Positions 1,323 through 16,004 of a stretch of DNA of 35,418 bases are shown here, piece after piece. The notes beneath the pieces were generated by a model that saw nothing but the letters and a program-made list of their open reading frames with translations, did not search any database and was not told where the DNA came from. The number at the start of each line of letters is the position of its first letter. Positions within the stretch are counted from its first letter, which is position 1. Source of the DNA: Sulfurospirillum sp. (lineage in GTDB: Bacteria; Campylobacterota; Campylobacteria; Campylobacterales; Sulfurospirillaceae); contig JALSME010000112.1 in the NCBI GenBank assembly GCA_026987955.1, positions 1 through 35,418 of the forward strand. Reading direction: 5' to 3'. Both the position numbers and the translations under genes were made by a program.

Positions 1323-1925
1323 TTGTTATCCTATGGAAATGAAAATATACCATATAGTGTAGTTACAAACAAAAAATTAAAAAACCTATACATTACAATT
1401 GACCCCATTTTTGGGGTCATAGTAAAAAATCCCAACTTTCCTCTGTCTTATGTCCACTCATTGGTTGAAAAAAAAGCTAACTGGATAGCAAAAAAACTTC
1501 ATCATACGAAAAAACGAATCTCTATAAAAAGCATTTATGAAAATGAAAAAAAAGTACTCCTATATGGTAAAAAAGAGTCTCTACATATAAAACAATCTTT
1601 AGCAGATTTTTACAAACAAAAATCTGCTGAGACCATACCTACTATGGTAGAAAAATGGGCTTTAAAGATGCATGTTAGCCCTACTAAAATAACATTTAGA
1701 AAGACCAAAAGACGATGGGGAAGCTGTAGCTGTAAAAATGAACTTAGCTTTACAAGCTCTCTTATACAGCTACCACAAAAGTGTATCGATTATATTATAG
1801 TTCATGAATTATCACATATAAAACATAAACATCATCAAAAAAGCTTTTGGTTACATGTAGCCAAATTTATGCCAGAGTTTAAAGAGTATGAAAAAATTTT
1901 AAAAAACTATTCACCACAAATCTAA
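1323..1925 (+). CDS. YgjP-like (COG1451/DUF45) putative zinc metalloprotein
   Basis: 200-residue member of the YgjP/DUF45 family, predicted zinc-dependent hydrolases of unknown substrate. The conserved family core is clear: RRWGSCS at 130-136, and the metal site HELSH at 161-165 followed by a third histidine near 171 and the FW pair (175-176). This is the SprT/WLM-like arrangement HExxH...H. No signal peptide, so probably cytoplasmic. The start is a TTG five bases after dnaJ stops, without a strong ribosome-binding site, which suggests translation coupled to dnaJ. A tight hairpin (GACCCCA, TTTT loop, TGGGGTC at 1401-1418) lies early in the coding sequence. The last 15 bases overlap tail-to-tail with the gene on the other strand. 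Confidence 0.85.
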   Translation: MLSYGNENIPYSVVTNKKLKNLYITIDPIFGVIVKNPNFPLSYVHSLVEKKANWIAKKLHHTKKRISIKSIYENEKKVLLYGKKESLHIKQSLADFYKQKSAETIPTMVEKWALKMHVSPTKITFRKTKRRWGSCSCKNELSFTSSLIQLPQKCIDYIIVHELSHIKHKHHQKSFWLHVAKFMPEFKEYEKILKNYSPQI

Positions 1926-3290
1926 TCTGTTAAACTCTTTTTTTATATCTTCTATATCTTCAATCCCAACAGATATACGAATCAAATCTATAGGTATACC
2001 ATTTTGGTCTAAAATCTCTCTACCCTCTTGACATGTTAGTAAATCATAGTGTGCTAAATAAACATAAGGCATCAATAAAGTAAATTCCGTCCCAAGGCTT
2101 GGTCCTTTTGCAAAATTTAATTTATCATACGCCTCTTTAAAATGAAAATTAAACTCTACCGATATAACAGGACTAAATTCAGAATAATAAACTCTTTTTA
2201 CAAAGCTTTTTTGCTTTAAAAACTCTACAAGTCTTTCTGCATTTTTTTTTGATTTTTCTACTCTTTTTTTATAATCTTTAATCTCATATGCCAATCTTTT
2301 CACATCTTTTATATACGGCTTATCAATATGACTTAAGAATTTTTCTCTATGCTTAGCATACTTTTGATTTAAAACAAAACAACCCATAAGAACATCAGCA
2401 TTTCCACAAGCAAATTTGGTTAGCGATTCAACCAATATATCTGCCTCTGTAATTTTTCCATAAGAAGTACTAAATGTAGAATCAATAACTAATGATATAT
2501 CATACTTTAAGCATATTTTTTTTAGTCTTTTTACATCCACACATTGCAAAAGAGGATTAGTAGGTAGTTCTGTTACAAGAGAAGATATTTTTTTATTGTT
2601 ATTCTTCAAAAACTCTTCTAATACATCTAAATCTTCTACATCATAAAAAATTTTACTTTCATAGCTCTCTATAAGATTCATACTATCAAGATAGATCCAT
2701 CCTAATTGAATAACAATACCCCCTCGTATCTCTTGTAGAGCTTTTAATACCCCATACATTGCATTCATACCAGAACAAGTTAAATATATATCATCGTTTC
2801 TATAGGCATCTCTTAGAGTCTCTAGTACATACTTTGGTTTATCTATACTTTCTACATATAAGGACTCAATCAATCCCCTATCATATAAATACTCTTCAGC
2901 AAATCTTGATGAGAGATTACAACCTACATGTTGAATAAATCTTAAAACTTTTTGTAAATCTTTTGAATTTTTCTCTATCAATACCACCCCAAAAACTTCA
3001 TCAAACTCTTTTTGTTGCTCTAAATTGTATGTTATGCAAATAAGAGTCGCAAACTTTTTTGAACTTACTAAAACAATTTCCTCTTTAGAGGACAGAGCAT
3101 ACTTATCTTTTAAAAAAACTGTCATTTTTTTAAGATAAGGATGAAGAACAAAACGGGGATAACCACTTTTGATAGCATCACAATTTCCCTCTTCATAAGA
3201 TATAATATCATCATAAGTGGGGATAGAAACTGATACTGCATGAACATTCTTGGGTGGCAGTGTTTCACCACATGGTATATGTTTAAACAT
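1911..3290 (-). CDS. Cystathionine gamma-synthase, fungal STR2-like type (PLP-dependent)
   Basis: PLP-dependent enzyme of the Cys/Met metabolism family, 459 residues, longer than the usual 380-400. The C-terminal two thirds hold the PLP fold: SGMNAMYGVL (cofactor phosphate region), ELPTNP, VIDSTFSTSYG with the pyridine-binding aspartate, the Schiff-base lysine in ESLTKF (K292), and IRISVGIEDIEDI near the end. The N-terminal part, with ETLPPKNVHAVSVSIPTYDD then YEEG and GYPRFVLHP, resembles the N-terminus I remember for fungal STR2/met-7 cystathionine gamma-synthases, so I infer formation of cystathionine from an activated homoserine and cysteine. It is translated after the gene at 3283-4437 with an 8-base overlap, so the two form an operon for cysteine-methionine interconversion. 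Substrate specificity cannot be read from sequence alone. Confidence 0.8.
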   Translation of the reverse strand: MFKHIPCGETLPPKNVHAVSVSIPTYDDIISYEEGNCDAIKSGYPRFVLHPYLKKMTVFLKDKYALSSKEEIVLVSSKKFATLICITYNLEQQKEFDEVFGVVLIEKNSKDLQKVLRFIQHVGCNLSSRFAEEYLYDRGLIESLYVESIDKPKYVLETLRDAYRNDDIYLTCSGMNAMYGVLKALQEIRGGIVIQLGWIYLDSMNLIESYESKIFYDVEDLDVLEEFLKNNNKKISSLVTELPTNPLLQCVDVKRLKKICLKYDISLVIDSTFSTSYGKITEADILVESLTKFACGNADVLMGCFVLNQKYAKHREKFLSHIDKPYIKDVKRLAYEIKDYKKRVEKSKKNAERLVEFLKQKSFVKRVYYSEFSPVISVEFNFHFKEAYDKLNFAKGPSLGTEFTLLMPYVYLAHYDLLTCQEGREILDQNGIPIDLIRISVGIEDIEDIKKEFNRLDLW

Positions 3291-4437
3291 TTACTGCTTG
3301 TTTTATATCGTCTATTAAGTCTTCGATATTTTCTAAACCAACAGAAAATCGAACTGTAGTCTCTGATATACCTATAGCTTCAAGTTCTGCTTTACTAAAA
3401 GTTGCGTGTGATATTTTAGCAGGAATCTCCACTCTAGAGTCTGGACTTCCAAAAGAGCACTTCTCACCAAAAATCTTTGTTTTTTCTATGAACTGTTCTG
3501 CTAAATTAATACTAATAAAATCTGCACAAAAAAGTCCAGGTATAAAATCCATCTGTTTTTTTGCTAACTCGTACTGAGCATGTGATTTCAGGGCTGGAAA
3601 AGTTACTTTTTTAATAAAACTCTGATTTTGTAAAAATTTGGCTAAAAGTATTGCATTTTTTTCATGCTCTCTCATGCGAATTTTAAGGGTTGGTATACCA
3701 AGACTTATCAAAAATACATCCATAGGATTTTGACTTCTACCATGGGCATTTGCATAAAATCCTATCTGCTGTGCTAGCTTTTTAGTTTTAGATACTATCG
3801 CTCCTGCAATCACACTTCCATGACCTGAGATATACTTTGTAGTTGAAAACAAAGAAAAATCAGCTCCCATATCAAGTGGTTTTTGGCTAATAAATGTAGC
3901 CAAAGAGTTATCTACTGCAAAAAGAGAATTATACTTTTTACTCAACTCCCCTATCTTCTCCAAGTCAATAATTTTAAGTCCTGGATTTGTAGGTGATTCA
4001 CACAGTATCAGATCAATCCTATTATTTGCAAGAATATCTTCTAACTCATCTAAATGTAAAAAGTTTTTAAAGTGTACTGTAACATTGTATTTTTCTTTAA
4101 ATATTTTAAGAAGTCTAAAAGTTCCACCATAACAATCGGCCTCTACAAGTACATGTGAGCCGGCACTTAAAACAGTCTCAAACAAAAGTCCAACTGCTGC
4201 TATGCCTGTATGTGTACATACGCAGCCTGCTCCATTTTCTACTTTTGTAAAAAGATTTTCAAGAACTTCTCTAGTGGGGTTCCCACTTCTTGTATAATCA
4301 TATACTCTATCGCCACTCTGCTTTTTAAGATCAAATGTTCCTGTATTATAAATTGGAAAATGTGATGCACCATGCTCATCTGCTTGAGTTGCAAAATCTT
4401 GAATATGTGCTAAATTTGTCTCTACATGTAAACTCAT
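3283..4437 (-). CDS. Cystathionine beta-lyase / gamma-synthase family enzyme
   Basis: 384-residue PLP enzyme of the transsulfuration family, standard length. Visible sites: YDYTRSGNPT at 46-55 (the Tyr and Arg that bind the cofactor phosphate of the neighbouring subunit), THTGIAAV, ESPTNP at 147-152, AVDNSLAT with the cofactor aspartate D176, the Schiff-base lysine K201 in STTKYISGHG, and the C-terminal TTVRFSVGLENIEDL, which binds the substrate carboxylate. With a gamma-synthase-like partner directly downstream, the economical reading is a MetC-like beta-lyase making homocysteine from cystathionine. Gamma-synthase, gamma-lyase or O-acetylhomoserine sulfhydrylase activity cannot be excluded. 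The ATG has AGGA eight bases upstream. First gene of the two-gene operon. Confidence 0.85.
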   Translation of the reverse strand: MSLHVETNLAHIQDFATQADEHGASHFPIYNTGTFDLKKQSGDRVYDYTRSGNPTREVLENLFTKVENGAGCVCTHTGIAAVGLLFETVLSAGSHVLVEADCYGGTFRLLKIFKEKYNVTVHFKNFLHLDELEDILANNRIDLILCESPTNPGLKIIDLEKIGELSKKYNSLFAVDNSLATFISQKPLDMGADFSLFSTTKYISGHGSVIAGAIVSKTKKLAQQIGFYANAHGRSQNPMDVFLISLGIPTLKIRMREHEKNAILLAKFLQNQSFIKKVTFPALKSHAQYELAKKQMDFIPGLFCADFISINLAEQFIEKTKIFGEKCSFGSPDSRVEIPAKISHATFSKAELEAIGISETTVRFSVGLENIEDLIDDIKQAVNV

Positions 4438-4662: not shown

Positions 4663-5775
4663 ATGGAAAATTTTTTATATATTACCGACAGAGAAGAGTA
4701 TACAGAGCATAACTTTATAGGGCCACTTTTTGAAAAGTATCTTCCAAAACATATGAATGTAGATGTAGTATATTTTTCAAAATACAAAAGTTTCTTTGAA
4801 GACAGAGGCAATGGTCGCTTTATAGTTCCGATACATGAGAAGCAAGATATACTTAGCTACCTAGAAGAGAATGATATTGATATTTATAAATATGACTATG
4901 TCGTTGTAAGAAATATCTATGATGTACTTGAAAATATTTTATCTAAAAAAGACAAATATGGTATCAAAGTGGGATATAGACTCTCTTTTCCAAAAATATC
5001 AGCAAAATTAGAGCATGCAAAAGCAGAAAATAGATCAAATATCCTTTTAGAAATAGACAAAAAAATAAAAATGCACACAAGGGCAAAACTTATAAATAGA
5101 TGTGACATATTTTTACCAACATCTAATACATTAAAAGATGTTTACTGCTCCGATATTAATATTAAAACTCATGCAATAAGATCTGGTATTGATCCTGATA
5201 AAGTGCATTCGAAGATTAGTAGAGGTGATGATACTATTGTATTTACATATACAGGTACTCTAAGCAAACTTAGAGACTTTAAAACTGTTTTAGAAGCATT
5301 TAATGAGCTTGAGTACAAAAATTGGAAACTATATATATCTACAAAAGATACAGACAGTGCAAATGAGTGTCTACAATCTTTAAATATTCCTAGTGAAAAA
5401 GTTGAAGTAATAGAAGCAGAGACGAAAGATGAGCTACTAAACCTCATGGCAAAGTGTGATGTTGGTCTATCACTACTTCCAGATATTAATCTTTTCAATA
5501 CATCAATTCACCTTAAAACAGTTGATTATTACACTACTGCTATTCCGACTCTTATGACAAATAGTGAAAAAAATAGAAAAACTTTTACAGATGGTAAAGA
5601 TGCTTGGCTTTGTGATTTTAGTAAAGATGCAATTCTAAGTAAACTTGAAGAGATTATGCAAACACCAAAAAATAAAATACGGGCGATGGGTGTTGCTGGT
5701 CAAGCACAACTTTTAGAAAAAAGAGACTATAGAAAAATTGCAGCTGATTTAGCAGAAGTACTAAAATCACTATAA
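4663..5775 (+). CDS. Glycosyltransferase, GT-B fold (GT4-like)
   Basis: 370-residue soluble protein with the two-domain layout of GT-B enzymes. The N-terminal half is a divergent acceptor domain. Residues about 190-370 form the nucleotide-sugar domain: FTYTGTLSKLRDFKTVLEAF (family start: Tyr-Thr-Gly, then a helix), a middle strand ending LMAKCDVGLSLLP, and HLKTVDYYTTAIPTLMT, which corresponds to the conserved S/K..EY.A.G.P region but has Asp where Glu is usual. No transmembrane segment. ATG with AGGAG seven bases upstream. It is 23 bases ahead of the MotA/ExbB-like gene, so it is probably co-transcribed with the motor pair. That suggests it glycosylates or builds an envelope component linked to that complex. 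Donor and acceptor are unknown. Confidence 0.75.
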   Translation: MENFLYITDREEYTEHNFIGPLFEKYLPKHMNVDVVYFSKYKSFFEDRGNGRFIVPIHEKQDILSYLEENDIDIYKYDYVVVRNIYDVLENILSKKDKYGIKVGYRLSFPKISAKLEHAKAENRSNILLEIDKKIKMHTRAKLINRCDIFLPTSNTLKDVYCSDINIKTHAIRSGIDPDKVHSKISRGDDTIVFTYTGTLSKLRDFKTVLEAFNELEYKNWKLYISTKDTDSANECLQSLNIPSEKVEVIEAETKDELLNLMAKCDVGLSLLPDINLFNTSIHLKTVDYYTTAIPTLMTNSEKNRKTFTDGKDAWLCDFSKDAILSKLEEIMQTPKNKIRAMGVAGQAQLLEKRDYRKIAADLAEVLKSL

Positions 5776-5798
5776 CCCAATAATATAAAAGGTCAAAT

Positions 5799-7061
5799 AT
5801 GAATAATAACTCATTTATTACAAACCCTGACAATGAGAATAGTAGCTGTTTTATAAAAGTAATATACCTACTTTTAGCACCTCTTGGTATCTATCTTTTT
5901 GCAATAGCAGGATATACAAATGTTATACCATTTAAAGTTGAAATACATAGCATAATTTTGATGGGTATTATTTTTATTGTTTATCTTTTTCTACTTAAAC
6001 ATAATGCATACTATGCATCTTGCAAGTTTACTCAGAGCTTAAGTGACTTCAAACATGCCTTAGAACTATATATTAGAAAAAATACTTTGGTAATTGCCAA
6101 TACTTCTAAAGCTAATGCCTCATATAAAGACTTTGCAAAAGAGTATACATCTGAACTTCGCAATGAAAACTTTGCATCTATTGCTGCAGGAATTTTTCCT
6201 ACACTTGGAATTTTAGGTACTTTTATCTCTATTGCTATATCTATGCCAGATTTCTCATCTAAAACATCAGCCGTGCTAGAAAGAGAGATTTCTCTTCTTT
6301 TAGGTGGTGTTGGAACTGCATTTTATGTATCTATATATGGTATATTTTTATCTATTTGGTGGATATTTTTTGATAAAACAGGTTTAAGTAGATTTGAAAG
6401 GGTTATCAATAGTATAAAGATACAAACCAAACAACTCTTTTGGGATAAAGAGGAGATAGAGCAGACTTACTTTCAAAAAAGCATGGAGAACTTTGAAAAG
6501 CTTAATCAAGTTTTTAATAACTTTGCACAAGATGAGCTTATTGAAAATATGAATAAAACAATGACTCAAAGAGTAAAGATGTTTGATGAGATTATAACTT
6601 TAGAGCAAAATGCTATTAAAAATGCGACTGCACAGATCAATGAAAGTCTTATGTTGACCGCAGAGTCGCAAAAACTAAATAGTAAACTTATATCTGACTT
6701 CAAAGAAATGATAGATACATACAAAGAGTCATCTCAAACCATGCAGAAAAATACAGAGTATTTAAAAGAAATCTCAGATGCACTTAAATCAAAAGAGATA
6801 AGTATCTCAAATATTGCATCATCACTTGAAAATATAAGTGCTCAAAATGTAGATCAAATTTATAAAGCTATAGTTAAAAACTTTGAGATTATGAAAAAAG
6901 ATACCGACCAAATAGGCTGGTCGTTTAACTCCTATCTGAATGAATTTGATGAAAAATTTGCCAATAGACTAAAAGACACTCTACAAACAATAGATAGTGA
7001 AGTGGTAAAAATCGTAGATTCACTCTTAAAAATAAAAGAGCTAGAGAATGTACAAGGATAA
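5799..7061 (+). CDS. MotA/TolQ/ExbB-family proton-channel protein with long coiled-coil tail
   Basis: 420-residue inner-membrane protein. Four membrane segments are visible: about 19-38, 51-67, 127-148 and 166-191. The last two carry the family signature: GIFPTLGILGTFISIA and GGVGTAFYVSIYGIFLSIWW, with the threonines that line the ion path in MotA, TolQ and ExbB. Residues about 195-420 form a long, charged, helical cytoplasmic tail rich in heptad-like repeats. Plain ExbB or TolQ lack this, while ZorA of the Zorya defence system has a much longer one. The start has AAGG-type pairing upstream. The stop codon overlaps the next gene (MotB/OmpA-like) by 14 bases, implying a stoichiometric complex. 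Likely the stator ring of an ion-driven rotary motor; its output partner is not known. Confidence 0.85.
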   Translation: MNNNSFITNPDNENSSCFIKVIYLLLAPLGIYLFAIAGYTNVIPFKVEIHSIILMGIIFIVYLFLLKHNAYYASCKFTQSLSDFKHALELYIRKNTLVIANTSKANASYKDFAKEYTSELRNENFASIAAGIFPTLGILGTFISIAISMPDFSSKTSAVLEREISLLLGGVGTAFYVSIYGIFLSIWWIFFDKTGLSRFERVINSIKIQTKQLFWDKEEIEQTYFQKSMENFEKLNQVFNNFAQDELIENMNKTMTQRVKMFDEIITLEQNAIKNATAQINESLMLTAESQKLNSKLISDFKEMIDTYKESSQTMQKNTEYLKEISDALKSKEISISNIASSLENISAQNVDQIYKAIVKNFEIMKKDTDQIGWSFNSYLNEFDEKFANRLKDTLQTIDSEVVKIVDSLLKIKELENVQG

Positions 7062-8184
7062 TAAAAACCAAGAAGAAACACAAAACTTTTGGATTTCTTA
7101 TGCTGACTTAATGGCAGGTCTATTGTTTGTTTTTATTCTTTTAGTTGGTGCAATTGTAATAAAATATGTATTTATTCAAACAGATTTACAAACGATTAGA
7201 ACAGACTTACAAAAAGAAAAAGATGCACTAGGACTAAGTGAAAGTGACTTGGCAGATAAGAAAAAAAGACTTGAAAAAATACAATTAAAACTAAAAGATG
7301 CAAGAAATAAAAACTTTCATCTCTCCTTTGAAATAACAAAACTACAAGGCAAACTTAACTCTATGAGTAAAGCTCTTGACCTAAGTGAACTTGACAAAGA
7401 GAAGCTAAATGAATTAATTGCAAAAAAAATAGAAATAATTACTATGAATGCAAATGAAATACAAAAACTAAAAGACTTGCTATTTGACTATGAACTAAAA
7501 GAGAAAGATCTTCTAAGTAAAAATGATACTCTTCAAAAAGAGTTACAAAATAGCAACAATACCATAATACTTAAAAATGAAGAACTTGCTATGCTCGAGA
7601 ACTCTCTCATAATAAAATCCAAGGAGCATCAGGCACTAGTTGAAGAGCTTGATATTGCAAAAGTCAAAATTAAAAGTCTTACAGGAATTAAAATTAGAGT
7701 TATATCTAAACTGAAAGAGAAGCTAGGAAAAAGCATCGCTATAGATAAAAACAGTGGTGCTATTAGATTTAGCTCTAATATACTTTTTGAACAGGGCAAA
7801 TACAAATTAAAAGATAGTTCAAAAAAAGAGCTAAATAGACTTCTCAATAGTTATATTGATACCCTTCTCTATGATAAAGATATAAAAGACAATATTGAGC
7901 AAATTGTTATAGAGGGTTATACAAATTCAGATGGTACATACCTTTACAACTTAGAACTTTCACAAAAACGAGCACTTGAAGTTATGAAATTTTTATACTC
8001 AAGCAATCCAAAGAAAAGTGCTATCTTTAGAAAATATATAAGTGCTAGTGGTCGCTCATATGCAAACCCAATTATGATGGAGAATGGAGAAGAGGACAAA
8101 GATGCATCAAGAAGAATAGAGATTAAATTTAGGATAAAAAATGAAAAAGCAATCAATGAACTTAAGAAATTTTTATCTAAATAG
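7048..8184 (+). CDS. MotB/OmpA-like motor partner with coiled-coil stalk
   Basis: 378 residues in three parts. An N-terminal membrane helix, NFWISYADLMAGLLFVFILL (13-32 and on to about 40), holds the likely proton-binding aspartate D20 in the MotB/ZorB position. Residues about 45-225 are a long periplasmic coiled coil of Leu/Lys/Glu heptads. Residues about 235-378 form an OmpA-like peptidoglycan-binding domain, with LSQKRALEV and SRRIEIKFR. The loop that normally reads GHTD is GYTN at 290-293, so the aspartate that contacts diaminopimelate is asparagine here, although D295 lies two residues on. It forms a channel pair with the gene at 5799. The stalk is far longer than in MotB or ZorB, so the peptidoglycan anchor may sit far from the membrane or replace a plug. 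Confidence 0.85.
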   Translation: MYKDNKNQEETQNFWISYADLMAGLLFVFILLVGAIVIKYVFIQTDLQTIRTDLQKEKDALGLSESDLADKKKRLEKIQLKLKDARNKNFHLSFEITKLQGKLNSMSKALDLSELDKEKLNELIAKKIEIITMNANEIQKLKDLLFDYELKEKDLLSKNDTLQKELQNSNNTIILKNEELAMLENSLIIKSKEHQALVEELDIAKVKIKSLTGIKIRVISKLKEKLGKSIAIDKNSGAIRFSSNILFEQGKYKLKDSSKKELNRLLNSYIDTLLYDKDIKDNIEQIVIEGYTNSDGTYLYNLELSQKRALEVMKFLYSSNPKKSAIFRKYISASGRSYANPIMMENGEEDKDASRRIEIKFRIKNEKAINELKKFLSK

Positions 8185-8302
8185 TTTTGAGTTAAAAACT
8201 TCAAAAAAAAGAGAACAACTTCAAGATCTAATTTTAAAAAAAACAGTATCTAATAACTCTTTTTCTACAAAATTTATAAAACTACTCAAAAAAATATTTT
8301 AA
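8141..8302 (+). CDS. Candidate small basic protein (53 aa) overlapping the motor partner gene
   Basis: An ATG at 8141 opens a 53-codon frame that overlaps the last 44 bases of the MotB/OmpA-like gene in the +1 frame and stops at 8302. It is preceded by AGGA (8131-8134) six bases upstream, a better ribosome-binding site than many genes here. The product is strongly basic, rich in Lys and Leu/Phe, with no signal peptide or known motif; the C-terminal half (SFSTKFIKLLKKIF) could be an amphipathic helix. It fills almost the whole gap up to the next promoter. No family recognised. It may also be chance, because AT-rich sequence readily yields such frames. Confidence 0.4.
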   Translation: MKKQSMNLRNFYLNSFELKTSKKREQLQDLILKKTVSNNSFSTKFIKLLKKIF

Positions 8303-8323
8303 AAATATTTTTTATGGTAAAAT
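8290..8323 (+). promoter_or_regulatory. Extended -10 promoter with AT dyad for the small membrane protein
   Basis: TGGTAAAAT at 8315-8323 is a TGN-extended -10 element. Directly upstream, 8290-8312 is an A/T-only inverted repeat (AAAAATATTTT, one base, then its complement), which could act as an UP element or curved DNA. Predicted start near 8330, giving a 25-base leader with AGGAAC at 8344-8349. It lets the gene at 8355 be transcribed separately from the motor operon. Confidence 0.45.
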
Positions 8324-8354
8324 GCTGTTATAAAATTATTATCAGGAACATTTA

Positions 8355-8855
8355 GTGAAACAAAAGGTATCAATAAAAGAGAAAATTATAGATTATGTAT
8401 ACACAATATCAGATCAACCTGTTATGTTTAAGGACCTTTTGGAGGCTAATAACATATACAATGAGAAAATGTATGTTGACTCAGGAAAATTAGGCTTTCG
8501 TATCAATATAACAAAAGCATATATTGCATACCTAATTATCTGTGCTATAGTTATCCTACCTCTAATTGGTATCACACACTACTTTCTTAAAAATATGGAT
8601 TTTCATTTTTCAGTGTTGGGATCTGTCTTAGTTACTGCAGCAGTATTTATAGGGTTTAATTTCTTCAAATCCTGGATAAGAGATGCCATAACCCTCAAAT
8701 TAATAAAAAAAGCTTGGTTAGTTCACTTTCCTTTTTTTGCTTATGACAAATACAGTAAAAAAGTACAAGAAATTTATAATGAAGCACTTAAAAATGAAAT
8801 CTCTAAAAAAGATATACGACTATATGTAATGGACAAACTAGTAGATAAAAATTAG
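8355..8855 (+). CDS. Hypothetical small membrane protein (two TM segments)
   Basis: 166 residues, GTG start with AGGAAC six bases before it. I do not recognise the family. The layout is a charged N-terminal cytoplasmic part (1-53), two membrane segments (about 55-77 and 87-104), and a basic, helical C-terminal tail (about 105-166) ending in DKLVDKN. No cysteine pairs, metal sites or nucleotide-binding motifs are visible. It follows the motor genes on the same strand but has its own promoter-like sequence, so linkage to the motor is possible, not shown. The gene end faces the 3' end of polA. Confidence 0.7.
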   Translation: MKQKVSIKEKIIDYVYTISDQPVMFKDLLEANNIYNEKMYVDSGKLGFRINITKAYIAYLIICAIVILPLIGITHYFLKNMDFHFSVLGSVLVTAAVFIGFNFFKSWIRDAITLKLIKKAWLVHFPFFAYDKYSKKVQEIYNEALKNEISKKDIRLYVMDKLVDKN

Positions 8856-12576: not shown

Positions 12577-13968
12577 GTGGAAAAATTGACAAATATTTTT
12601 AAGAAAAAATATGCCACAACTAAATCTGAAACTTCTGCACTTAGCAGAAGAGATTTTTTCAAAAAAACAGGTGCTTTAAGTGTTGCTGCAACCGCAGTTT
12701 TAGCCCCAATTGGACTAAAAGCAGATGATGATGCTATTATGCATCATCCAAAATGGGGACAATCATGGGGAGATCCTGTTACTAAAAATAGATATGGTAT
12801 CCCCTCAGCCTATGAGCATAACAACATAAGAAGAAATACAAAGCTTCTAGCTTCAGGCAACTACCGTGCCGCTATAGCTGTTGCACCTATACATGAAAGC
12901 GAGGGTATTATTACTCCAAATGGTCTTTTCTTTTCAAGAAGTCATGGAGGAACAGCACATGTTGACCCTAAAGAGTTTAGACTTATGATAAATGGTCTAG
13001 TTGAAAAACCCATTGTACTAACACTAGACCAGCTAAAAAGATACCCTAAAATTACAAGGACTCACTTTATTGAGTGTCCAGCTAATGGTGGACAAGAGTG
13101 GAGAAAACCACAATATAACTCACTTCAATTTGCAAAAGGTTTTATGAGTTGTGCAGAATGGACCGGAGTCTATATAAAAACAATATTAAAAGATCTAGGT
13201 TTAAAACCAAATGCAAAGTGGATGCTAGCAGAAGGTAGCGATAACTCTGAAATGGGAAGATCTATTCCTGTTGAAAAAGTTCTTGATGATGCAATGCTAG
13301 TATGGGGGCAAAACGGTGAGGCACTTAGACCTGAACAAGGCTATCCTGTAAGACTATTACTTCCGGGCTGGGAAGGAAACCTATGTGTTAAATGGTTAAA
13401 AAGATTAGATTTTGCAGAAGAGCCATGGTATGCAAAAGAGGAAACATCTAAATACACTGCACTTAAACCAACAGGAAAAGCAATACAACACTTCTATGCC
13501 AATGAAGTAAACTCAACTGTTGTTTCACCATCACCTGAAAAACCATGGACTGACTTAAAAGAGGGAGATGTAGTTGAAATAGAGGGTCTAGCATGGTCTG
13601 GAATGGGAACAATTAAAAGAGTTGATCTCTCTTTTGATGGTGGAAATAGCTATGAAAAAGCTCATATTAAAGGCTTGGTTTTGCCAAAATGCTGGACTAG
13701 ATGGTCATACATATACAAAATACCAAAAGGTTTTAAAAATAAAAATGGGAAACAGATAATTCTTACTTCAAGAGCAATAGATGATGCTGGCTTTATTCAG
13801 CCTACTATTGACCAAGAGATTTTTGGATATGGTGTTGCAAAAAAGAACTATGGAAAAGATAAAAACAAAGGTATGGGCGTTGAATCTGTATATCATAGAA
13901 ATGCTGTTGAATCTTGGGAAGTAACAGAAAATGGGGAGGTGAACCATGTTCAAATTAGAACAATATAA
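12577..13968 (+). CDS. soxC: Sulfane dehydrogenase SoxC (molybdopterin subunit)
   Basis: Periplasmic molybdenum subunit of SoxCD, which oxidises the sulfane sulfur bound to SoxY and so saves the cell from storing sulfur. 463 residues of the sulfite-oxidase fold. Twin-arginine signal SRRDFFKKTGALSVAATAVL (23-42) for export with the cofactor. The molybdenum-ligating cysteine is C167 in HFIECPANGGQEW. The C-terminal dimerisation domain follows (GLAWSGMGTIKRVDLSFDGG; GFIQP). The GTG at 12577 is preferred: AAAGGA is six bases upstream, and the nearby ATG at 12573 runs into a stop after nine codons. The end overlaps soxD by 23 bases, showing tight coupling with its haem partner. First gene of the sox operon. 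Confidence 0.93.
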   Translation: MEKLTNIFKKKYATTKSETSALSRRDFFKKTGALSVAATAVLAPIGLKADDDAIMHHPKWGQSWGDPVTKNRYGIPSAYEHNNIRRNTKLLASGNYRAAIAVAPIHESEGIITPNGLFFSRSHGGTAHVDPKEFRLMINGLVEKPIVLTLDQLKRYPKITRTHFIECPANGGQEWRKPQYNSLQFAKGFMSCAEWTGVYIKTILKDLGLKPNAKWMLAEGSDNSEMGRSIPVEKVLDDAMLVWGQNGEALRPEQGYPVRLLLPGWEGNLCVKWLKRLDFAEEPWYAKEETSKYTALKPTGKAIQHFYANEVNSTVVSPSPEKPWTDLKEGDVVEIEGLAWSGMGTIKRVDLSFDGGNSYEKAHIKGLVLPKCWTRWSYIYKIPKGFKNKNGKQIILTSRAIDDAGFIQPTIDQEIFGYGVAKKNYGKDKNKGMGVESVYHRNAVESWEVTENGEVNHVQIRTI

Positions 13969-15136
13969 AATAGTTACTGCTTCAATCCTAACAGCACTAA
14001 CCTTGGTAAGTGTAGCTCAAGCAAAAGAGAGTGAGTCTACAGCATACAACGGACTTTGGAATGCAAAAAAAGATATTAGTGGTGGGGTATATTACCCAAT
14101 TAAAGATGGAAAAACTGGACCATACTATGTAAACCCACAAGTATACAAGAATTCAGATATATCAAAAAAAGAAGATGGAATTAAGAGGGGTTATAATCAT
14201 GGTAGAACTCCTACTAAAAATGAGTTAAAAGCATGGAATAAAGATATCATGCCAGACGGTACCGGACTACCAGATGGGTATGGTTATGTTGATGAAGGTG
14301 AAGCTTTATATGAGTCAAAATGTCTAGCTTGTCATGGTGATTTTGGATCTGGTGGAGGTGGATATCCCGCACTTTCAGCAGGAAAAGCAAAAGATATGCA
14401 AAGAACACTAAAAAATAATAGATGGCTAAATCCAACAGCAGAAGGACCATCAAGAGTATTTGGTTCATACTGGCCAGTAGCAAGTACAATGTTTTGGTAC
14501 ATAAGAGATGCTATGCCACACACTAAATCAAAAACCTTAACTAATGATGAAACCTACTCTTTAGTTGCATATATGCTTTATATAAATGGCATGAAAGTTA
14601 ATGGTGAAATTGTAAATGAAACATTTAAACTCGATCGTGATAAGTTTTTGAAAATACAGATGCCAAATAGGTATGGTTTTATTCCTGATATAGATGGGTC
14701 TGATGGCATCGAAAATGTTAGAGAGTTTTTTGCAAATCCTCAAAACTTTGGTGGTATCAGACTAGCAAAAGGGGAAGAGCCTTGCATGAAAAATTGCCAG
14801 CAAACTGAAAATGTAGTGAGAGTTGATGGTGGAATTACAGATTTTGAGCCACCAATGTCAGTTGCAAGAGACCTTCCTGCTCCAAAAAATGATCCTGCTC
14901 ACAAAGTTAGTTTTGATGCAAAAGGTGCATATGATAATAACTGTGCAATGTGTCATGGTACCGGTGTTGCTCCTGCTCCTAAAGATAAAGCAGGATGGGC
15001 TCCATTTCTTGAAAAAGGTCTTGCAGAAGTTATCAAAAATGGAATAGATGGAACAAATAATGGTATGCCAGCGAAAGGTGGGTCATCTCTTAGTGATGAT
15101 GAGTTCAAGCAAGTCGTAGAGTACATGGTTAAATAG
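13946..15136 (+). CDS. soxD: Sulfane dehydrogenase SoxD (c-type cytochrome subunit)
   Basis: 396-residue dihaem cytochrome c partner of SoxC that takes electrons from the molybdenum site to the periplasmic cytochrome pool. Sec signal peptide at 1 to about 26 (TASILTALTLVSVAQA, cleavage before KES). Two haem-binding motifs: C126-x-x-C129-H130 (CLACH) and C333-x-x-C336-H337 (CAMCH), with methionines in AMPHTKS and GMPAKGG as likely distal ligands. A pair of extra cysteines (EPCMKNC) sits between the haem domains and could form a disulfide. ATG with GGGAGG upstream inside soxC. It is followed 13 bases later by soxY. Confidence 0.92.
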   Translation: MFKLEQYKIVTASILTALTLVSVAQAKESESTAYNGLWNAKKDISGGVYYPIKDGKTGPYYVNPQVYKNSDISKKEDGIKRGYNHGRTPTKNELKAWNKDIMPDGTGLPDGYGYVDEGEALYESKCLACHGDFGSGGGGYPALSAGKAKDMQRTLKNNRWLNPTAEGPSRVFGSYWPVASTMFWYIRDAMPHTKSKTLTNDETYSLVAYMLYINGMKVNGEIVNETFKLDRDKFLKIQMPNRYGFIPDIDGSDGIENVREFFANPQNFGGIRLAKGEEPCMKNCQQTENVVRVDGGITDFEPPMSVARDLPAPKNDPAHKVSFDAKGAYDNNCAMCHGTGVAPAPKDKAGWAPFLEKGLAEVIKNGIDGTNNGMPAKGGSSLSDDEFKQVVEYMVK

Positions 15137-15149
15137 TAAAGGAATTAAA

Positions 15150-15605
15150 ATGAATAGAAGAAATTTTTTAAGTTTTGCAGGAGGATTAGTCGCTATATCT
15201 ATAATGCCAATCGATTTAAGTGCAAAAGATTATAGAAAGTTAAAACCAGATGTTTGGACAGCACATACAATAGATGAGGCCACAAAGGCTCTTTACGGAG
15301 TAAGAGAGATTATAGAAACAGATAAAATCAAAATAAAAGTTCCTAAAATTAACTCTAGTGGAGCTAAAGTACCGGTAACATTTGAGACATCTATTGATGC
15401 AAAAACAGTAGCTCTATTTCAAGATGCAAACCCAGAGAGTGCCGTTGCTGTTTTTAATGTTGGTCCTTATGATGTTAAAAAATATGGAGCAAAAATAAAA
15501 ATGGCAAAAGATGGAATTTTAATGGTTTTAGTTGAAGGAACAGATGGTAACATCTACATGGCCAAAGCAGCAACGAAAGTTGCAGCTGGCGGATGTGAAG
15601 GATAA
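15150..15605 (+). CDS. soxY: Sulfur carrier protein SoxY, C-terminal GGCEG variant
   Basis: 151-residue subunit that carries thiosulfate-derived sulfur on a C-terminal cysteine. Twin-arginine-like signal MNRRNFLSFAGGLVAISI sends it to the periplasm, probably folded with SoxZ. The Ig-like core follows (VPVTFETSID; VAVFNVGPYDVKKYGAKIKMAKDG). The usual end of SoxY is GGCGG; here it reads AAGGCEG, so the cysteine (third from the end) is present but the first glycine after it is Glu. This SoxY sits with soxCD, so it may be the copy dedicated to the SoxCD step, with another SoxY elsewhere with soxXAB, as in some relatives; that is inference. Confidence 0.9.
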   Translation: MNRRNFLSFAGGLVAISIMPIDLSAKDYRKLKPDVWTAHTIDEATKALYGVREIIETDKIKIKVPKINSSGAKVPVTFETSIDAKTVALFQDANPESAVAVFNVGPYDVKKYGAKIKMAKDGILMVLVEGTDGNIYMAKAATKVAAGGCEG

Positions 15606-15608
15606 ATA

Positions 15609-16004
15609 ATGGCAAATAAAATATCAGCTATAAAAGTAAAAATTAAAAATGGTGTAGCTACTGTTAGAATGGCAATTTCTCATCCAATGCTTACATATGC
15701 ACAAGCAGAGGCAAAAACAGGAAGTAGAGAAGATTCTAACTTCATAACACATATAACGGGAAAAGTTGGAGATGAAACTGTGCTAGATGTTTCAACAAGT
15801 CAATTTTTATCTAAAAATCCAATCTTTCTGTTCTTGTTTAAATGTGATACATTTAAAATAGGTAGAAAACTATCTGGCAGAGAACTAGATAACGGAGCAA
15901 AAAGAAAAGATTCCGAAATAGGTGACTTTCTTACGATTATTGCAACTGACAGAAAAGGTAATACCTATAAAAAATCTGTAGAACTTGCATCTAGAAAAAA
16001 ATAG
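15609..16004 (+). CDS. soxZ: Sulfur oxidation protein SoxZ
   Basis: 131-residue partner of SoxY; the two form the SoxYZ carrier. Family features: VKIKNGVATVRMAISHPMLT at the start (SHPM is typical), FITHITGKV, and SQFLSKNPIFLFLFKCD (SKNP is typical). It is somewhat longer than the usual 100-110 residues, because of an extra segment after the SKNP strand (about 80-100, GRKLSGRELDNGAKRKD). It has no signal peptide, as expected for a protein that travels through the Tat pathway with SoxY. It begins three bases after the soxY stop. Confidence 0.9.
   Translation: MANKISAIKVKIKNGVATVRMAISHPMLTYAQAEAKTGSREDSNFITHITGKVGDETVLDVSTSQFLSKNPIFLFLFKCDTFKIGRKLSGRELDNGAKRKDSEIGDFLTIIATDRKGNTYKKSVELASRKK

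What the first reader, a model, noticed from the sequence alone, without database searches (positions are those of the whole stretch)
4663..8855. Uncharacterised ion-driven envelope motor module: glycosyltransferase + MotA/ExbB-like channel + MotB/OmpA-like stalk protein + small proteins
The sequence shows a channel protein with the MotA/TolQ/ExbB pore helices and a 220-residue cytoplasmic coiled coil. It overlaps by 14 bases a partner with a MotB/ZorB-type membrane aspartate (D20), a roughly 180-residue periplasmic coiled coil and an OmpA-like domain. Established 5:2 rotary motors (Mot, Tol, Exb, Gld, Agl, Zor) have different accessory genes. This pair lies behind a GT4-like glycosyltransferase and ahead of two small proteins, with none of the Zorya effectors, Tol/Exb or Mot genes. 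The enlarged stalk and long tail suggest a motor that transmits force or a signal to an unknown cytoplasmic partner, with glycan synthesis linked to it. Function is inference.
Basis: partly seen in the sequence, partly recalled or inferred. Interest (0 to 1): 0.62.

Follow-up and report, generated by a model that had tools for sequence, protein, structure and literature searches.

The report
Widespread Zorya-like envelope motor in Campylobacterota
Two adjacent genes encode an ion-driven membrane motor related to the anti-phage Zorya motor but without its defence partners; the pair is found in about half of Campylobacterota, usually with a tiny third gene that annotation misses, and its job is unknown.

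Summary
The channel/stalk pair is real: A at 5799-7061 and B at 7048-8184, overlapping by 14 nt. By sequence and by fold, both proteins are closest to ZorA and ZorB, yet they form their own clade. The glycosyltransferase occurs in 5 of 44 family genomes, far from the pair or without it. The 166-aa gene is a separate gene that sits convergent to polA.

The conserved companion is a gene the finding did not list: a basic 38-58 aa protein ('C', window 8141-8302). It overlaps the end of B, is under purifying selection, and is present across Sulfurovaceae, Arcobacteraceae, Sulfurimonadaceae and two Sulfurospirillaceae genera. It is missing in Campylobacteraceae and Sulfurospirillum proper. A+B occur once per genome in 194 of 397 Campylobacterota genomes and in 46 of 46 of one Campylobacter-type genus. 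The pair is kept in 26 of 26 sampled genomes without flagella and never has ZorC/D/E beside it. Phylogeny shows exchange between families inside the phylum, with C following AB.

Best reading: a resident, peptidoglycan-anchored 5:2 rotary motor of the ZorAB branch that turns a cytoplasmic rod, recruited for a non-defence envelope task. The mechanism is inferred and the output is unknown.

The parts
5799..7061 (+). Subunit A: ZorA/MotA/ExbB-like channel, 4 predicted TM helices (18-39, 49-68, 123-148, 157-213 with its cytoplasmic extension), ~200-residue cytoplasmic helical tail with a conserved tip (391-409)
   Evidence: PF01618; PADLOC ZorA models; AF2 model; ZorA is the best PDB fold match; conservation profile
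7048..8184 (+). Subunit B: ZorB/MotB-like axle with D20, a 165-residue helical stalk (65-229) and a C-terminal OmpA-like peptidoglycan domain
   Evidence: PF00691; PADLOC ZorB1 PDLC00609 204 bits; AF2 model; ZorB is the best PDB match by sequence and fold
8141..8302 (+). Subunit C (not named in the finding): 53-aa basic protein overlapping the end of B, with a C-terminal amphipathic basic helix
   Evidence: Same position and 53 codons in the same-genus relatives; homologues after B in about half of 128 loci; dN well below dS; motif profile absent from 11,302 control small ORFs apart from one or two explicable hits
4663..5775 (+). GT4-like glycosyltransferase: a neighbour only, judged NOT part of the module
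   Evidence: 5 of 44 family genomes; elsewhere in the chromosome or without AB; only loosely nearby in some Arcobacteraceae
8355..8855 (+). 166-aa membrane protein: a neighbour only, judged NOT part of the module (convergent partner of polA)
   Evidence: In G036 and G010 it lies 6-12 bp from polA, far from AB; present in AB-less G038 and G043

Best explanation
A, B and (where present) C form a resident ion-driven 5:2 rotary motor of the ZorAB branch that has been put to a non-defence envelope role. Five A subunits surround two B helices. The ion flow passes D20 of B and the T141/S178 ring of A. B's long helical stalk carries its OmpA-like domain out to the peptidoglycan, where it is fixed, so A turns. 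The five A tails bundle into a cytoplasmic rod whose conserved tip docks a partner or signals. C, a basic amphipathic small protein, probably lies on the inner face of the membrane and binds A's tail or the motor as a regulator or coupling piece. SHOWN here: homology, residue conservation, gene order, distribution, lack of linkage to flagella and to ZorC/D/E, selection on C, and C following AB across lineages. INFERRED: 5:2 assembly and rotation (from solved ZorAB), rod formation, the role of C. The final output (envelope tension sensing, cell-wall or periplasm spacing, or another task) is not known.
For: Closest solved relatives of both A and B are ZorA and ZorB, by profile search and by fold. 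A occurs once per genome in 194/397 Campylobacterota genomes, with B beside it in nearly all loci examined, and in 46/46 genomes of one Campylobacter-type genus, where most of the sampled loci show the order nth-PEB4-like-fba-A-B. FlhA is absent from 26/26 AB-positive Sulfurovaceae and f8-g48 genomes, so the motor is not a flagellar stator. No ZorC/D/E in 131 AB neighbourhoods, while true Zorya II (ZorE) is sporadic, 6/298. T292, R308 and R355/R356 match the ZorB peptidoglycan triad, and D20 the ZorB ion residue (PMC11890865). C; the C of genus g2 is of the Sulfurovum type, as is its AB. Conserved tail tip.
Against: No experiment and no complex prediction was possible. The A model is weak (pLDDT 66). 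AB was exchanged between families (AU test p 1e-61 against one Sulfurospirillaceae clade, while polA holds them together), which is also seen with defence genes. AB is absent from about half of the genomes, e.g. the sampled Helicobacteraceae, so it is dispensable at phylum scale. C is missing in Campylobacteraceae and Sulfurospirillum proper, so it is not needed for the core function there.
Confidence: 0.6

Rival explanations
1. An unrecognised Zorya-type phage defence: the ZorAB motor senses injection at the envelope, and C or a distant effector acts in the cell.
For: Nearest relatives are ZorA/ZorB; conserved cytoplasmic tail tip; exchange between families.
Against: No ZorC/D/E neighbours; single copy and 46/46 within a genus, unlike true Zorya at 6/298; housekeeping neighbours (fba, nth) in Campylobacteraceae; C has no nuclease-like size or domain and is missing in a whole clade.
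Confidence: 0.17
2. An auxiliary flagellar stator, or a force generator for other surface motility.
For: MotB-like axle, OmpA-like anchor, ion-path residues.
Against: 26/26 sampled AB-positive Sulfurovaceae/f8-g48 genomes lack FlhA; the genome has its own MotAB-like pair (contig C102); closest to Zor, not Mot. Gliding is not excluded.
Confidence: 0.06
3. A Tol-Pal or Ton-like energiser of the outer membrane (force passed through a TolA/TonB-like protein encoded elsewhere).
For: Peptidoglycan-anchored, ion-driven, widely retained.
Against: Own TolQ/ExbB-like genes exist; TolB is found both with and without AB; no conserved Tol/Ton gene cluster next to AB was seen; tree places A with ZorA rather than TolQ/ExbB.
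Confidence: 0.15
4. The glycosyltransferase and the two small genes are true parts of a glycan-linked motor module.
For: GT ends 23 nt before A in the window, and GT relatives lie within about 5 kb of AB in some Arcobacteraceae.
Against: GT in only 5/44 family genomes, ~900 kb away in G010, and present without AB in G043; the 166-aa gene is polA-linked.
Confidence: 0.03

Closest known systems
Zorya ZorAB motors (type I 8VVN and 8QYD, type II 8VVI from Sulfuricurvum kujiense)
   Same: Best sequence and fold matches for both subunits; D in the B helix; peptidoglycan residues T/R/R; helical cytoplasmic extension of A; adjacent A-B genes
   Different: Separate clade in the A tree (the B tree is less clear); far below NCBIfam ZorA/ZorB cut-offs; B has an extra ~165-residue stalk helix; no ZorC/D/E; single-copy and near-universal within some genera; a small gene C follows B in many lineages
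PRK09039-type MotB-like peptidoglycan-binding proteins (NF006542-NF006545)
   Same: Same B architecture: N-terminal helix, coiled coil, OmpA domain; NF006543 matches residues 6-361 of B
   Different: Scores 30-67 bits against cut-offs of 305-388
Flagellar stator MotAB
   Same: Channel/axle pair, axle Asp, OmpA-like anchor
   Different: Present in genomes without flagella; A places outside MotA
C. jejuni Cj0598/Cj0599 (inferred orthologues, from gene order and own recall)
   Same: The Campylobacteraceae copies mostly lie directly behind nth, a PEB4-like gene and fba
   Different: No function published in the papers found; Cj0598 is listed only as a hypothetical protein with human-associated amino-acid substitutions (PMC5841378)

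Membership tests
Zorya anti-phage system | ZorA and ZorB homologues encoded side by side | tested here: met
   PADLOC ZorA 54 bits, ZorB1 204 bits; best PDB relatives
Zorya anti-phage system | Falls within the ZorA/ZorB families as curated | tested here: not met
   NCBIfam ZorA 17-44 bits vs cut-offs 250-750, ZorB 61-83 vs 400; own clade in the A tree, 95 support
Zorya anti-phage system | Adjacent effector genes ZorC+D or ZorE | tested here: not met
   None in 131 loci, 2031 ORFs; a ZorE search over 298 genomes gave 6, the window's own genome none
Zorya anti-phage system | Type III effectors ZorF+G | not tested
   No reference sequence was used
Zorya anti-phage system | Long ZorA cytoplasmic rod | tested here: inconclusive
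   Helical tail of ~200 residues predicted, low confidence; pentamer not predicted
Zorya anti-phage system | Protects against phage | not testable with these tools
   Needs infection assays
Flagellar stator MotAB | Occurs with the flagellar apparatus | tested here: not met
   FlhA absent in 26/26 AB-positive Sulfurovaceae and f8-g48 genomes
Tol-Pal | Gene cluster with TolA/TolB/Pal | tested here: not met
   No such conserved neighbours seen; TolB elsewhere and independent of AB
5:2 ion-driven rotary motors | Axle Asp and ring of Thr/Ser in the channel helices | tested here: met
   D20, T141, S178 invariant and aligned with ZorB/MotB and TolQ/ExbB/ZorA
5:2 ion-driven rotary motors | 5:2 assembly and ion-driven rotation | not testable with these tools
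   Only single-chain models possible

The most novel reading that the evidence does not exclude
A third branch of ZorAB-type motors: a three-subunit machine (A, B and a dedicated membrane-surface microprotein C) that turns a cytoplasmic rod for a housekeeping purpose, showing what ZorAB motors do, or did, outside phage defence.
Probability: 0.4. Interest if true: 0.75.

Novelty: new variant of a known kind. Interest (0 to 1): 0.52.

Why it matters
Zorya motors are known only as phage defence. A related motor that is single-copy, near-universal in whole genera including Campylobacter-type ones, independent of flagella and free of defence effectors would be a resident member of that branch, and would let the origin and signalling principle of ZorAB be tested in tractable bacteria. 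It also flags that profile-based defence scans could call this pair 'ZorB', and it adds a conserved microprotein family without a Pfam entry.

Tried and rejected
Glycosyltransferase as a module part: rejected. 166-aa gene as a module part: rejected, polA-linked. Flagellar role: rejected. Simple vertical inheritance: rejected, since AB splits the Sulfurospirillaceae while polA unites them. Tol-Pal replacement: not supported. Plasmid search with A gave nothing, and with B only distant ZorB/OmpA proteins. First named-genome scan found nothing because poorly conserved peptides were used as patterns; repeated with the alignment. C elsewhere in genomes that lack it next to B: only chance-level hits inside long ORFs, but the profile also missed sister G039, so sensitivity is limited. 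Conserved gene after B in Campylobacteraceae looks like a pyridoxal-phosphate enzyme (ACC-deaminase-like, judged by eye), not a C replacement. Literature: no paper found on ZorAB-like motors outside defence, nor a function for Cj0598/Cj0599.

Full report
OBSERVATION. A (5799-7061, 420 aa) carries PF01618. B (7048-8184, 378 aa) carries an OmpA domain plus a sub-threshold MotB_plug match. The upstream ORF is a GT4-like glycosyltransferase. The 14-nt A/B overlap is exact. AF2 models (12-sequence alignments) give B one helix through the membrane, a 165-residue helix (65-229) and an OmpA-like domain (pLDDT 79.5). For A they give four helices in the membrane region and a long, low-confidence helical tail (pLDDT 66).

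WHAT THE PAIR IS. Profile search of the PDB: the best relatives of both A and B are ZorA and ZorB. Foldseek gives the same answer for both models. D20 of B aligns with the ZorB and MotB aspartates. T141 and S178 of A align with the TolQ/ExbB threonines. T292 and R308 of B align with ZorB T187 and R203, and R355/R356 with the C-terminal Arg (the residues are named in PMC11890865). In trees the A family is one clade (95), Zorya A proteins another (91), both apart from MotA/TolQ/ExbB. The B tree agrees less strongly (family 79, Zorya not one clade). Long branches are present, so the exact sister relation is unsure. Curated NCBIfam Zorya cut-offs are far from reached.

DISTRIBUTION. A is found in 194/397 Campylobacterota genomes, once per genome (one genome had two matches), and in 46/46 genomes of one Campylobacter-type genus; B is found in most genomes of the window's own family. 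The best 80 loci in a scan of named bacterial and archaeal genomes are from Campylobacterota or loosely named relatives (371 loci encode relatives and only the best 80 were kept, so other phyla are not excluded). Most sampled Campylobacteraceae loci have the order nth - PEB4-like - fba - A - B, which by recall matches C. jejuni Cj0595-Cj0599. All 26 AB-positive Sulfurovaceae and f8-g48 genomes examined lack FlhA. No ZorC/D/E relative occurs in 131 AB neighbourhoods. True Zorya II is sporadic (6/298).

The glycosyltransferase is in only 5/44 family genomes. In G010 it is ~900 kb from AB, and G043 has it without AB. In Arcobacteraceae it is in 47/81 genomes and only sometimes near AB. The 166-aa gene lies 6-12 bp from polA, convergent, in G036 and G010, far from AB, and is present in AB-less G038 and G043. 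Neither belongs to the module.

THE THIRD GENE. A small ORF overlapping or touching the stop of B recurs. In the window it is 8141-8302, 53 aa. A profile built from 41 seed sequences matches 64 of 128 loci at E<0.01; some loci are the same genome twice. The window copy itself is weak (E 0.007; sisters from 9e-6 to 7), so homology of the window-genus copies rests mainly on position, length and the basic amphipathic C-terminus. Among 11,302 other small ORFs only one strong match appears (in L106, a locus where B was not called as one ORF, so perhaps its own C) and one weak match. An ORF of that size and position follows 7.8% of other genes. In the part beyond B's stop dN is below dS in every pair with a usable dS, usually several-fold, weakest for L112/L125. 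Median length is 49 aa, net charge +8, with an amphipathic basic C-terminus. Many copies share a motif of a hydrophobic or aromatic residue, x-Pro-x-x-Leu, near the N-terminus; the window copy lacks the Pro. C is absent next to B in Campylobacteraceae and Sulfurospirillum proper, which form one clade of the AB tree.

HISTORY. A tree of A+B splits the Sulfurospirillaceae into three places: the window's genus near Sulfurimonadaceae, g2 with Sulfurovaceae, Sulfurospirillum with Campylobacteraceae. One clade is rejected (p-AU 1e-61), while polA unites them (95). The pair has therefore moved between families, or was duplicated and sorted. The g2 version of C is of the Sulfurovum type, like its AB, so C follows AB.

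HOW IT LIKELY WORKS. In Zorya, five ZorA and two ZorB form a motor, the ZorA tails bundle into a rod, and peptidoglycan binding, ion flow and the tail are all needed (PMC11890865). The same parts are here, so the same mechanics are inferred. In A, conservation drops along the tail and rises again at its tip, 391-409, which suggests a docking site. The extra stalk in B would let its anchor reach peptidoglycan further from the inner membrane (inference). C is best read as a membrane-surface regulator or coupling piece (inference). The final output is unknown.

VERDICT. Real, widely distributed, not characterised in the papers I could search; a new variant of a known kind (ZorAB-type 5:2 motors).

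Noticed in passing
L069:3445-4687 (contig C89 of the window's own genome): Between a PglB-type oligosaccharyltransferase and a PglF-type gene lies a second Zorya-like pair: a 197-aa protein with a helix-hairpin-helix domain joined to a shortened ZorA2 channel, then a ZorB2-like protein. It may be a remnant or an unusual fusion.
   Followed up: partly
L036-L065 and L078-L210 (A+B loci) versus L235-L260 (polA): A+B phylogeny disagrees strongly with polA inside Sulfurospirillaceae, indicating exchange of this motor between families.
   Followed up: yes
window 8355-8855: The 166-aa membrane protein is a widely conserved gene without a Pfam family (124 of 249 genomes), adjacent and convergent to polA in at least three genomes.
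   Followed up: partly
window 1911-4437: Two adjacent paralogous genes that look like Met/Cys-metabolism PLP enzymes; relatives sit directly before A in L037 and L038, in the other orientation relative to AB.
   Followed up: no
window 7924-7926 (B residue 293): In the window's genus, and in L126, the acidic residue of the OmpA-like peptidoglycan motif is Asn instead of Asp (TNSDG for TDSDG), although the T/R/R residues are kept.
   Followed up: no
window 12577-16004: A run of genes resembling SoxC, SoxD-like cytochrome, SoxY and SoxZ (thiosulfate oxidation), judged by eye from the translations only.
   Followed up: no
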